Positions 1,896 to 18,216 of a stretch of 37,302 nucleotides of DNA are shown in pieces. The stretch comes from an uncultured Acetatifactor sp. GTDB lineage: Bacteria > Bacillota > Clostridia > Lachnospirales > Lachnospiraceae. Position numbers and translations under genes: made by a program. The notes beneath the pieces are model-generated. The model ran no database searches and had not been told where the DNA came from. It saw nothing but the letters and a program-made list of their open reading frames with translations. The DNA lies in the NCBI GenBank assembly GCA_947589505.1, contig CANQCF010000012.1:1-37302 (forward strand), written 5' to 3'. How positions within the stretch are numbered: the stretch's first letter is position 1; each line of letters begins with the position of its first letter.

Positions 1896-2240
1896 AAAAA
1901 AAGGACCACCCTCTCAAAAGGGTGAGCCCTCACTCACGTTACCACCTCATGTTCCCGTATAGCTCACGCCATACGGCTCAGCGAGTATCCAACAATACTC
2001 CTGGTCTGTACCGGGACCTCCCGTCAAAGCCTACTCTGAGGATCCTTTGGCCGCCACATATTAACAAAGCCGCCCGCCGGACTTCCCCGTTTGGGTTTGC
2101 TGCTCCGAGATGTATTCCTGCCAGGCTTTTTGCGCCTCTCACCAACCGGCCGCTCTCTGTAAAAAGGGGACTCGCAGTACTCTTTCTCTTCATCGCATTT
2201 CCATATTCTGTTTAAGCCTGTCAATTCCCGCAGGCTTTTA
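1896..2240 (-). promoter_or_regulatory. T-box leader (tyrosine type) with terminator/antiterminator upstream of tyrS
   Basis: Minus strand shows GATGAAGAGAAAGAGTA, AGAGAGCGGCCGGTTGGTG (Stem I distal motif), GAATACATC with candidate UAC specifier (2112-2114), GAGGTGGTAACGTG T-box sequence, then AGGGCTCACCCTTTTGAGAGGGTGGTCCTTTTTTT terminator. Confidence 0.92.
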
Positions 2241-13774: not shown

Positions 13775-15109
13775 TCACTTCTCCTCATTCCTCTCGCGGA
13801 TGATAAACCTCAGCGGAGTCCCCTTAAAGCCAAAAGTCTCCCGGATCTGGTTTTCAATATACCGCGTGTAGGAAAAATGCATCAGTTCCTTATCATTCAC
13901 AAAGATCACAAAGGTCGGGGGCTTTACCGCCGCCTGTGTGATATAGAAAAGCTTTAAGCGCTTTCCCTTGTCCGTGGGGGGCTGCTGCATGGCAACCGCC
14001 TCCGCCATGATCTCGTTTAAAACGCCGGTCTGCACCCGCATAGCATGATTTTCGCTCACCATGTCGATGGTCTCAAACAGTTTCGGAAGACGCTGTCCGG
14101 TCTGGGCGGAGATGAACAGGATCTCCGCATAGGGCATGAAGCTCAGCACATTCCGAATCCTCTCCGTAAACCGGTAGATCGTCTTGTCATCCTTCTCCAC
14201 GGCGTCCCATTTGTTCACCGCGATGATCACCGCCTTGCCACGGTCGTGGGCGATTCCCGCGATCTTCGCGTCCTGCTCCGTGACCCCTTCCTTTGCGTCG
14301 ATCACCAGAACCGCGATATCCGCGCGTTCCACCGCGCTGACCGCACGCACGATCATGAACCTCTCCAGCTCTTCTTTGATTTTGTTTTTCCGTCGGAGTC
14401 CGGCCGTGTCGATAAAGACATATTCTTTTCCGTTGTACTTGATCTCGGTGTCCACCGCGTCCCTCGTCGTCCCGGCGATGTCGGACACGATCAGCCTGTC
14501 CTCCCCAAGGAGCTTATTGATCAGCGAGGATTTCCCCACATTGGGTTTTCCGATGATCGCCACCCTGGGTCTCTCGTCCTCTTCCTGCTCCCCAGTATCC
14601 TCCGGGAAATGGCTGCACACCGCCTCCAGCATGTCACCGATCCCGGTGCGGTTCACCGCGGAGACCGGAACCGGATCCCCCATGCCCAGGTTATAAAACT
14701 CATACACGTCCGCCTCATATTTTTTCGGGCTGTCCACCTTGTTGACCACCAGTACCACCGGTTTCCGGGAGCGCCTAAGCATATCCGCCACCTTGGAATC
14801 CGCATCCTGCAGCCCCTGCTTGACATCCACCAGAAAGAGGATCACGTCCGCCGTCTCAATGGCGATCTGGGCCTGGGCCCGCATCTGGGAGAGAATGACG
14901 TCCTTGGAATCCGGCTCGATCCCCCCGGTGTCGATCAGGGTAAAAGTGCGGTTGAGCCAGGTGACGTCCGCATAAATCCGATCCCGGGTAATTCCCGGCG
15001 TATCCTTTACAATCGAAATATTTTCCCCCGCCAGGGCGTTGAACAGGGTGGATTTGCCTACGTTAGGCCGCCCTACCACCGCCACGATGGGTTTTCTCTT
15101 ATCACTCAT
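13775..15109 (-). CDS. der: Ribosome biogenesis GTPase Der (EngA), tandem G domains
   Basis: Two G1 motifs ([17 protein letters not shown]), two NKxD motifs, C-terminal KH-like domain. Confidence 0.97.
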
Positions 15110-16460
15110 GATATAATTCCTCCAAAACCGCCTCCACAAAGTCGCGTCCGCTTGATTTTACAATAGAAATCGGAACTTGTAAAGTCTTTTCCAACTCCGG
15201 GACGCGGATATCGTCCAAAAAAACATCCTCCCCGTCCCGCAGCATATTCTCCGTCAGAAGCAGACGACTCCCCAGTCTTCGGCCCTTCAGCTGGGTGATA
15301 AGGTCCTGCCCTGTGAGAAGTCCGGCCACCGTGATCCTCTCCCCAAAGAAATCGTTCCGGATTTCATAAATATGTATCATCAGGCCGGGGCAGAGTCCCA
15401 TGAGTTCCTGGGACATCTCAGAGAGAAAGGGGTACGCCAGTTTCCCGGTGGCCATGGAGATCTCCTTTTTCAAGTTCCGGTCCGGCAGTTTCCCCTCTTT
15501 CTTCAGCCTGTCCGTTTCCTCCCGAAATTCATTCAGGAGCAGCCGCACCATCCCCACGCCGTTTTCCAGCTGCAAATATCCGTCATAGCGCTCTTCCTCC
15601 GGCATTTCCTCCCCGGCGAGGAGATACCACTCGTCCCCGGCATGGATAAAATGGATCCCGTATTTTTCATAACAGATTTTCTGATACCGATGGATCAGCT
15701 CCAGCACCGCCCTGGCGTCCTCCGGTTCAAAAGGCTCCAAGGGAAAGAGCCCCTCCCGGTACCTGGTAAGTCCCACGGGCACCACCGAAACGCTCTGCAG
15801 GTTCGGGATATATTTCATCAATTCTTGAATGCTGAACTCCAGCTCTTTTCCGTCGTTGATCCCCTTACAGAGCACGATCTGGCCGTTCATACGGATGCCT
15901 ACAGCTTTTAGGGCATCAACCTTCTTTAAGGCTTCCCCGGCAAAGCGGTTATTCAGCATACGGCAGCGCAGCTCCGGGTTCATGGTGTGGAAGGAAATAT
16001 TGATGGGACTCAGCCGATAACGGCAGATCCGCTCTATGTCATGGTCAGACATATTTGTCAGGGTCACATAGTTGCCCTGCAGGAACGAGAGCCGGGAATC
16101 GTCGTCCTTAAAATACAGCGTCTCCCGCATCCCCTTCGGCATCTGGTCGATAAAGCAGAAGATGCATTTGTTGCAGCATCTCCGATACTCGTCCATCAAT
16201 CCGCTCTCGAAAGTGATTCCCAGATCCTCATCGGCCTCCTTGTCGATCTCCAGGAGCCACTGTTCCCCGTCCGGTTTCTCTACGAGAACTTCTATGTAGG
16301 TATCCTGCACAAGGAACTGATAGTCAAAAATATCTTCTATCTCCGTATCGTTTATGGCAAGGATGCTGTCCCCGGGGCAGATTCCCATCTCCTGGGCAAT
16401 GCTCCCCTCTCCGACGCTCTTTACGATATGTTTTTTCTTTTCCCGCCGATCGTCCTTCAT
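15102..16460 (-). CDS. DUF512 family protein, PDZ-like N-terminus plus radical-SAM-like region
   Basis: [56 protein letters not shown] at 16460; 8-bp overlap with der. Confidence 0.88.
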
Positions 16461-16506
16461 TCCTTCCTCCAAAGCAGTTTTATGGGGGCAGCCCACGCCT
16501 CCCTTG

Positions 16507-16876
16507 CAACAGTTCAGCCCACGCCTTTTATTCGCAAAGCCGCGCTGGCGCGCTTCCCGGCGCTTCGCGCCTTCCTTTGCTCATAAGGCGGCGTTTTGAC
16601 TCCCTGGCAACAGTTCAGCCCACGCCTTTTATTCGCAAAGCCGCGCTGGCGCGCTTTTCCGGCGCTTCGCGCCTTCCTTTGCTCATAAGGCGGCGTTTTG
16701 ACTCCCTTGCAACAGTTCAGCCCACGCCTTTTATTCGCAAAGCCGCGCTGACGCGCTTTTCCGGCGCTTCGCGCCTTCCTTTGCTCATAAGGCGGCGTTC
16801 CCTCAGCCGTCGGTCCGACGAAAGATTCCGTGCAAGCACGATCTTTCGTCGATACCGTCGGCTGGCTGAACTGTTG
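16507..16876. repeat. Composite repeat element: three ~101-bp tandem units, a 61-nt hairpin, and 13-bp terminal inverted repeats
   Basis: CAACAGTTCAGCC at 16507, 16608 and 16710 (period 101/102); GGCTGAACTGTTG (exact reverse complement) at 16864-16876; each unit has internal arms CGCCTTTTATTCGCAAAG ... CTTTGCTCATAAGGCGGCG. Confidence 0.95.
16804..16864. repeat. Long imperfect inverted repeat (about 26 paired bp)
   Basis: CAGCCGTCGGT-cc-GACGAAAGAT-tc-CGTGC-aa-GCACG-ATCTTTCGTC-gat-ACCGTCGGCTG. Confidence 0.93.
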
Positions 16877-16901
16877 ATATAAGTAGTATACCCGAAATCT
16901 C

Positions 16902-16930
16902 TTGACGTGTCGATAGGGGAATGTTACATT
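16902..16930 (+). promoter_or_regulatory. Candidate prs promoter
   Basis: TTGACG-N17-TACATT. Confidence 0.65.
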
Positions 16931-17022
16931 ATAAGCGGAAAGTTTTTCACCGCTGTTTGGTATGTGGTGAAACAAAAACGCAGTCAATTATTCTGAAATC
17001 TTAACAACCGGAGAGAAAAAAC

Positions 17023-18216
17023 ATGCCTGATTTACAAGAACTGGAAAACGCAATGCCCGTAGCCCCTCTTAAAATTGTGGCCCTGTCTTCCGCGGCGCGG
17101 ATGGGGCGGCGGATCAACAATTATTTAGTTGAATTCCGGAAGAGCGTCCACAATGACAAGGTGAAGAACGACCCTGCCTTTCACGGCTACATTGAAAGCA
17201 ATTATTTGGTAAAGGCGGACACTCCCCGCTTCGGAAGCGGAGAGGGGAAAGCGGTGTTCTATGAATCCATCCGCGGAAAGGATCTCTTTATTCTGGTGGA
17301 CGTGTGCAACCACAGCATCACCTACGAAATGAACGGGTGCACAAACCACATGTCTCCTGACGACCACTTTCAGGATTTAAAGCGCGTAATCGCCGCCTGC
17401 AACGGAAAGGCCCACCGGATCAATGTGATCATGCCTTTCCTCTACGAGGGACGTCAGCACAAGAGAAACGGCCGGGAATCCTTGGACTGCGCCTTTGCGC
17501 TGGAAGAGCTTCGGGATATGGGGGTCTCCAACCTGATCACTTTTGACGCTCACGATCCCAGAGTTCAGAACTCCACGCCCTTAAGCGGCTTTGACAATTT
17601 TCTTCCCCCCTACCAGTTCATCAAGGCTCTGCTCAACTCAGAACAGGATCTTCTCGTGGACAAAGAACACCTTCTGGTGATCAGCCCTGACGAGGGCGCT
17701 CTGGATCGGGCGATCTACTTTGCCAGCGTTCTGGGCGTGGACACCGGCATGTTCTATAAACGGAGAGATTACTCCGTGATCGTAAACGGGAAAAACCCCA
17801 TCGTCGCCCATGAATTCCTGGGCGAAAACATCGACGGCAAAGATATCATCATCATCGACGATATGATCTCTTCCGGCGGCAGCATGCTGGACACCGCAAA
17901 ACAGCTGAAAGGCATGAACGCCCGCAGGGTGTTTATCTGCACCACTTTCGGGCTCTTTACGGACGGACTTGCCGCTTTTGACAAGGCTTATGAGCAGGGC
18001 CACTTTGACAAGGTCATCACCACGGACCTGACATATCTTCCTCCCGAGCTCTACAGCAGGCCTTATTTCGTCGAGGCGGACATGAGTAAGTTCATCGCCT
18101 CCATCATAGACTTTATGAACCACGACGCCTCCATGGCGGGAGTCATGGCTACCACGGAAAAAATACACAGTGTTCTGGAAGCCTACAACAATCGCTCCAA
18201 TATGGATGTGGAATAA
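17023..18216 (+). CDS. prs: Ribose-phosphate pyrophosphokinase, long divergent form
   Basis: PRPP-binding loop IIIIDDMISSGGSM, LITFDAHDPRVQNSTP region, 397 aa. Confidence 0.88.
   Translation: MPDLQELENAMPVAPLKIVALSSAARMGRRINNYLVEFRKSVHNDKVKNDPAFHGYIESNYLVKADTPRFGSGEGKAVFYESIRGKDLFILVDVCNHSITYEMNGCTNHMSPDDHFQDLKRVIAACNGKAHRINVIMPFLYEGRQHKRNGRESLDCAFALEELRDMGVSNLITFDAHDPRVQNSTPLSGFDNFLPPYQFIKALLNSEQDLLVDKEHLLVISPDEGALDRAIYFASVLGVDTGMFYKRRDYSVIVNGKNPIVAHEFLGENIDGKDIIIIDDMISSGGSMLDTAKQLKGMNARRVFICTTFGLFTDGLAAFDKAYEQGHFDKVITTDLTYLPPELYSRPYFVEADMSKFIASIIDFMNHDASMAGVMATTEKIHSVLEAYNNRSNMDVE

What the first reader, a model, noticed from the sequence alone, without database searches (positions are those of the whole stretch)
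16507..16876. Composite repeat element with 13-bp terminal inverted repeats between the DUF512 and prs genes
Three tandem units (period 101/102 bp), each starting CAACAGTTCAGCC and each holding its own inverted arms (CGCCTTTTATTCGCAAAG / CTTTGCTCATAAGGCGGCG) and a GCGC-rich core, are followed by a separate ~26-bp-stem hairpin and closed by GGCTGAACTGTTG, the exact reverse complement of the unit start. The ancestral form was probably one unit plus hairpin flanked by TIRs (MITE-like or REP-like), later expanded on the left. A degenerate stub (CAGCCCACGCCTCCCTT) at 16489 suggests an earlier partial copy. No transposase and no clear target-site duplication are visible. It lies between divergent promoters, so it may also act as an insulator or a structured RNA.
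Basis: partly seen in the sequence, partly recalled or inferred. Interest (0 to 1): 0.66.

Follow-up and report, generated by a model that had tools for sequence, protein, structure and literature searches.

The report
Mobile structured repeat, Clostridiales-1 relative
The repeat is one old, locally expanded copy of a small jumping DNA element that is scattered through many gut Lachnospiraceae genomes; it is related to an RNA motif of unknown function in the public RNA catalogue (Clostridiales-1), and we show that this motif moves as a transposable element.

Summary
The segment is one copy of a dispersed family: over 50 copies in this genome and hits in 80 of 138 genomes of the genus. Read head-first (minus strand) the unit is TIR - CUUG-capped hairpin - GAGGGA - branched tail hairpin - TIR. 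It matches Rfam Clostridiales-1 (RF01699, function unknown) end to end, but below its cut-off (40.6 vs 48 bits). Better-preserved relatives have the ends GTAACAGTTCAGCC...GGCTGAACTGTTAC. They are flanked by 8-bp target duplications (22 of 73 copies; 0.25 expected). Four insertions have gap-free empty sites in sister genomes. A second branch (ends TGATG...CATCA), which scores far above the Rfam cut-off, makes 5-bp duplications. So this 'sRNA' family is a MITE-like, BOX-like mobile element. Its stems covary, and wobble pairs favour one strand (122 vs 37) whatever the gene orientation, so one strand's fold is probably selected. Eighteen relatives lack the copy between DUF512 and prs. Here it sits at the predicted start site of the DUF512 operon, so it should form a ~400-nt structured leader. 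Extra tail units are later duplications. No autonomous partner was found (IS66, IS256, TIR-flanked genes checked). The RNA's role is unproven.

The parts
16864..16876 (-). head-side terminal inverted repeat CAACAGTTCAGCC (decayed form of GTAACAGTTCAGCC)
   Evidence: consensus end in relatives
16804..16863 (-). head hairpin with CUUG-type loop (GUGCUUGCAC)
16799..16804 (-). conserved single-stranded linker GAGGGA
   Evidence: alignment A1
16710..16798 (-). first (original) tail unit: branched hairpin with tandem G-A motif AUGAGCA...UGCGAAU, closed by GGCTGAACTGTTG
16608..16709 (-). second tail unit (local tandem duplication)
16507..16607 (-). third tail unit (local tandem duplication)
16489..16506 (.). 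stub of a further tail unit with its middle deleted (AGGGAGGCGTGGGCTG on the minus strand)
   Evidence: direct reading; inference
16716..16870 (-). full-length match (1-166/166) to Rfam RF01699 Clostridiales-1, 40.6 bits, below gathering score 48
16885..16913 (-). predicted promoter of the DUF512-der-plsY-gpsA operon: TCGACA - 17 nt - TATACT; predicted start site within 2 nt of the element's head
   Evidence: sequence shared with L159 and L160
16902..16930 (+). prs promoter TTGACG - 17 nt - TACATT, conserved in relatives, beginning 25 nt beyond the element
15105..16457 (-). DUF512-family gene downstream of the element's tail end
17023..18216 (+). prs (ribose-phosphate pyrophosphokinase), divergent neighbour

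Best explanation
A non-autonomous transposable element (MITE-like, modular like pneumococcal BOX), about 160 bp in its basic form: TIR, head hairpin, GAGGGA, branched tail hairpin, TIR. SHOWN: copies insert with perfect TIRs (GTAACAGTTCAGCC) and duplicate 8 bp of target. The window copy is an insertion that 18 relatives lack. The whole one-strand fold covaries. INFERRED: a DDE-type transposase supplied in trans and not yet identified moves it. The head-first strand is selected to fold as RNA at some step of the element's own cycle or in transcripts that run through it. In the window it landed at the start site of the DUF512 operon, so that operon should carry a ~400-nt structured leader. The two extra tail units arose afterwards by tandem duplication between AGGGA repeats.
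For: Dispersed copies: own genome; genus; 97 exact TIRs in one 2.9-Mb genome against 0 in the control; 80 of 138 genomes by covariance model. 8-bp duplications: 22 of 73 copies with at least 7/8 identity, 0.25 expected. Empty sites: two insertions in L190, one in L212, one in L267, each gap-free across the junction with one copy of the target. Lineage-specific insertion in the window: 18 relatives with the same DUF512-prs pair lack it. Structure: 23 of 59 pairs with changes on both sides, 11.7 in shuffles; strand bias of G-U pairs 122 vs 37 in the head hairpin, and the head-first strand folds better in 93 of 98 copies, with the same bias in every gene orientation. Orientation to neighbouring genes is near random (34 sense to both, 31 antisense to both).
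Against: The window copy itself has no recognisable target duplication. No autonomous element with these ends was found, even in the complete genome G006, and IS66 and IS256 genes are absent from most host genomes. The strand bias is weaker once similar copies are merged (24 vs 11 in 10 clusters) and absent in one set of distant copies. G-T is also tolerated better than A-C in single-stranded DNA, so RNA is not proven. No expression data.
Confidence: 0.88

Rival explanations
1. Clostridiales-1 is a true small-RNA gene family (Rfam's type is 'Gene; sRNA') that has multiplied; the window copy is one of many sRNA genes.
For: Full-length match to RF01699; strong covariation; better fold on one strand.
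Against: TIRs, 8-bp or 5-bp target duplications and empty sites show transposition. Orientation to genes is near random. Promoter-like sequence before the head is only about twice chance (13 vs 5.7). Copy number varies from none to dozens between species.
Confidence: 0.08
2. A hairpin element moved as single-stranded DNA by a Y1/RAYT-type transposase (REP/BIME or IS200/IS605-like); the strand bias reflects a folded DNA strand.
For: Hairpins, one-strand folding preference, positions at gene ends.
Against: Perfect TIRs and 8-bp duplications at empty sites, which that mechanism does not make (own knowledge). A Y1 gene was not searched for.
Confidence: 0.04
3. Local slippage only: a terminator or regulatory hairpin of the DUF512-prs region that was tandemly duplicated.
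For: The two extra tail units are nearly identical to the first and are best explained by local duplication.
Against: The same head-plus-tail element lies at more than 50 other places in the genome and in 80 of 138 genomes of the genus, and is absent from the same spacer in 18 relatives.
Confidence: 0.01
4. A domesticated regulatory element: insertions are kept because the folded RNA controls or protects the neighbouring transcripts (5' leader here, 3' UTR where the head abuts a stop codon). This adds to the mobile-element reading and does not exclude it.
For: Head within 20 nt of a sense stop codon in 27 of 42 cases; the window copy sits at the predicted start site of an operon with der, plsY and gpsA; stems covary.
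Against: Antisense copies are as common as sense ones and are just as well folded. Nearness to stop codons may only reflect where insertion is tolerated.
Confidence: 0.2

Closest known systems
Clostridiales-1 RNA, Rfam RF01699 (Weinberg et al. 2010, PMC2864571)
   Same: Full-length model match in 18 copies of the own genome at E <= 1e-3; same order of CUUG hairpin, AUGAGCA...UGCGAAU helix, G..AG-hairpin-CGGA loop and closing stem; Lachnospirales, gut.
   Different: The copies I scanned stay below the gathering score (40.6-42.6 vs 48). Outer stem is (G)TAACAGTTCAGCC instead of TGATGCC; target duplication 8 bp, not 5; the third hairpin is nested differently. My model of the GTAA type finds most TGATG-type copies tested only weakly or not at all. 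The 2010 table lists the motif as 'probably' an RNA, not cis-regulatory; mobility is not mentioned in the held text.
BOX elements of Streptococcus pneumoniae (PMC3049150)
   Same: Modular short repeat with pairing ends and a middle or side module in 1 to several tandem copies; intergenic; folds as RNA; probable MITE; open frames run through the tandem modules on both strands.
   Different: Sequence unrelated as far as known (not aligned here); here a target duplication and empty sites are demonstrated; different hosts.
MITEs in general, e.g. Correia/NEMIS, ERIC, RUP, Nezha
   Same: Short, non-coding, TIRs, target duplication, highly folded, many copies, no transposase.
   Different: No parent insertion sequence with the same TIR was found; strand-biased compensatory evolution of internal stems; two branches with different TIRs and duplication lengths share one core.
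IS66 family
   Same: TIR starting GTAA and 8-bp duplication (own knowledge).
   Different: Transposase absent in 10 of 12 host genomes tested, only a fragment in the own genome; no matching ends at the IS66 genes found.

Membership tests
MITE (non-autonomous DDE transposable element) | terminal inverted repeats | tested here: met
MITE (non-autonomous DDE transposable element) | target-site duplication of fixed length | tested here: met
   8 bp in the GTAA branch, 5 bp in the TGATG branch; not recognisable at the window copy itself
MITE (non-autonomous DDE transposable element) | empty sites in relatives | tested here: met
MITE (non-autonomous DDE transposable element) | no transposase inside; multiple copies | tested here: met
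MITE (non-autonomous DDE transposable element) | partner insertion sequence with matching ends (usual, not obligatory) | tested here: not met
   none in complete genome G006 or between widely spaced TIRs in G061; IS66 and IS256 checked
Rfam RF01699 Clostridiales-1 | score at or above the gathering cut-off (48 bits) | tested here: not met
   40.6 bits in the window; none of 20 own-genome loci scanned reached it; relatives G006, G024, G057 reach up to 158 bits
Rfam RF01699 Clostridiales-1 | match over the whole model with its secondary structure | tested here: met
   1-166/166, E 1.6e-7
BOX (pneumococcal) | boxA/boxB/boxC sequence modules | not tested
   only the architecture was compared, from PMC3049150
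REP/BIME with RAYT | short hairpin with flanking tetranucleotide, no target duplication, Y1 transposase in the genome | tested here: not met
   8-bp duplication and TIRs; the Y1 gene was not searched
IS66-derived element | IS66 transposase with the same ends in the host | tested here: not met

The most novel reading that the evidence does not exclude
The folded RNA (or strand) is a working part of the mobility itself: a short structured transcript that recruits or guides a trans-acting transposase, so that one conserved RNA core has been carried by two sets of DNA ends with different target-duplication lengths (8 and 5 bp). That would be an RNA-dependent non-autonomous transposon.
Probability: 0.1. 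Interest if true: 0.9.

Novelty: new variant of a known kind. Interest (0 to 1): 0.56.

Why it matters
An RNA family catalogued since 2010 as a probable small RNA of unknown function is shown, in itself and in a sister branch, to be a transposing element with measurable ends and target duplications. That changes how its copies should be annotated and read in gut Lachnospiraceae genomes. It also raises a testable puzzle: a mobile element that duplicates its target like a DNA transposon, yet whose stems evolve as if one strand has to fold, with the same core carried by two different sets of ends. The window copy gives a concrete case where such an element has become the likely leader of an operon with der, plsY and gpsA.

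Tried and rejected
IS66 as mobiliser: GTAA ends and 8-bp duplications suggested it, but the gene is missing in 10 of 12 host genomes, and the IS66 genes found have no such ends. IS256: absent in 7 of 8 genomes, and in G006 its ends are GGGAGTATCC..., unrelated. Autonomous copy between distant TIRs in G061 (6-kb pairs) and in G006: only ordinary genes. Sense-strand selection by host transcription: not seen, antisense copies are as frequent and as well folded. Promoter just before the head as a general rule: only 13 copies against 5.7 in shuffles, and the same number reading outwards. Mobile carriers: no match in plasmids or phages by blastn and no exact pattern match in IMG/VR. Literature: no paper in the held library connects Clostridiales-1 or these ends with mobility; supplementary files of the 2010 paper could not be read. 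The stem that includes a gene's last codons and stop codon in some G006 copies was not explained.

Full report
WHAT IS THERE. The reported block is real. Three direct units start at 16507, 16608 and 16710, each with CAACAGTTCAGCC, and the block closes at 16864-16876 with the exact reverse complement. The minus strand of the head plus first unit folds at -91.2 kcal/mol, z = -8.8 against shuffles. Read on the minus strand the order is: end repeat, long hairpin with a CUUG-type loop ('head'), GAGGGA, branched hairpin ('tail'), end repeat; then two more tails and a stub.

IT IS A DISPERSED FAMILY. In the own genome (2.82 Mb, 220 contigs) the 13-mer has 64 matches with at most one mismatch against 1 for the reversed control, and the block has 53 matches at E <= 0.01, many with one head and one tail only. 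A covariance model built from 35 own copies (A1, R1) finds the family in 80 of 138 genomes of the genus, with several genomes saturating the 21 places scored. Named loci come from uncultured Acetatifactor and other Lachnospiraceae. One genome of 2.9 Mb has 97 exact GTAACAGTTCAGCC and none of the control. The element is not found in IMG/VR by exact pattern, nor in PLSDB or INPHARED by blastn.

IT IS RELATED TO A KNOWN RNA FAMILY. The window copy matches Rfam RF01699 Clostridiales-1 over the whole model with 40.6 bits, E 1.6e-7, gathering score 48. None of 20 other loci of this genome scanned reaches the cut-off. Relatives reach 50-158 bits, for example at least 38 copies in the complete genome G006, three with the same top score, and copies in two other families of the order. 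The 2010 paper lists the motif as probably an RNA, not cis-regulatory, in Clostridiales and human gut. In the other direction, my model of the window's type finds six of 23 distant loci, mostly weakly. So the two types are cousins and not one tight family.

IT MOVES. In 73 non-redundant copies from related genomes the ends are typically GTAACAGTTCAGCC...GGCTGAACTGTTAC. In 22 of them the 8 bases outside the two ends are identical or differ once, against 0.25 expected from mismatched pairs. I joined flanks around single copies and searched sister genomes. Two insertions in L190, one in L212 and one in L267 have uninterrupted counterparts with one copy of the 8 bases (or their homologue) at the junction. 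The TGATG branch in G006 and G024 carries exact 5-bp duplications outside TGATG...CATCA in eight copies, for example TTATA, TATAA, TTCTA, TATTA, TACTA. Shortened derivatives with both ends occur: 50 bp with TAGAAAAA on both sides, 98 bp with GATAGAAC, 84 bp of the TGATG branch with TAATA.

THE WINDOW COPY. The divergent DUF512/prs pair is conserved in the genus, and none of 18 relatives has the element there. Relatives G018 and G011 keep the promoter sequence AGTATACCCGAAATCTCTTGACGTGTCGATAGGGGAATGTTA that lies directly beyond the element's head. On the minus strand this gives TCGACA - 17 - TATACT, with the predicted start within 2 nt of the head. I infer that the DUF512-der-plsY-gpsA transcript now begins with the element. 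The copy is old: its ends have decayed to CAACAG and no target duplication remains. The two extra tails and the stub fit tandem duplication between AGGGA motifs (inference from sequence). Other loci of this genome have their own linkers and tail numbers.

WHY RNA IS STILL IN PLAY. Across 35 copies 23 of 59 pairs show changes on both sides, 11.7 in shuffles, and sliding the partner destroys the signal. Wobble pairs are unequal between strands: 122 on the head-first strand against 37 on the other in the head hairpin, while energies without wobble are equal. The head-first strand folds better in 93 of 98 copies and in 19 of 20 copies of G006. The bias is the same whether the copy is sense or antisense to its neighbours, so it seems to belong to the element itself. 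Caveats: copies are related, the bias shrinks when similar ones are merged and is missing in one distant set, and G-T in single-stranded DNA would look alike.

MECHANISM. The best-supported reading is a passive element moved by a DDE-type transposase in trans, which makes 8-bp staggered cuts for this branch. The transposase is unknown. IS66 and IS256 were tested and not supported, and no TIR-flanked gene was found. Copies avoid start codons on the head side (0 of 62 within 20 nt) and cluster at stop codons (27 of 42 on the head side), which may be tolerance or use.

NOVELTY. It works like, and meets the tested features of, a MITE with a BOX-like modular build. It is not a member of RF01699 by that family's own cut-off, but is its closest described relative. 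I found no earlier statement that Clostridiales-1 is mobile in the open-access library searched; subscription papers and supplements were not searchable.

Noticed in passing
G006 loci L122, L123, L124 and L110 (G018): Clostridiales-1 copies at gene 3' ends whose outermost stem includes the gene's own last codons and stop codon, with the inverted copy on the far side (e.g. L124 CTTTGGTGAATAG ... GATTCACCAAAG), different in each copy; no explanation found.
   Followed up: partly
window 16514-16987 (-) and 16577-16882 (+): Open frames of 157 and 101 codons run through the tandem units on both strands because the 102-bp period is 34 codons; same phenomenon as reported for BOX elements.
   Followed up: no
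L165 (G001) and L159 (G018), DUF512-prs spacer: Different hairpin or tandem-repeat elements occupy the same spacer in relatives (a large palindrome in L165; repeats of CCCCGAGTTCTTCTTCAGTCAAG plus a long inverted repeat in L159), suggesting a tolerant insertion site.
   Followed up: no
window 1915-2202 (-): T-box leader RF00230, 105 bits.
   Followed up: no
L316 (G062:C1:51500-52100) and L310 (G064): Copies in which small extra hairpins (AGTCGAAC...GTTCGACT; GTATGTCCGCTCC...GGAGCGGACTTGGC) have replaced or extended internal loops while the overall fold is kept.
   Followed up: no
L255 from about 4874 (reverse strand): A second TIR pair with an unrelated core (GTAACAGTTCAGCCATCGCC...TTGGCTGAACTG) directly beyond the target duplication of a full copy: nested or adjacent insertion.
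   Followed up: no
L197 (JAUNHB010000001.1): A copy inserted inside the 3' end of a coding sequence, duplicating ATCTGGCT; the flanks join to one continuous reading frame.
   Followed up: partly
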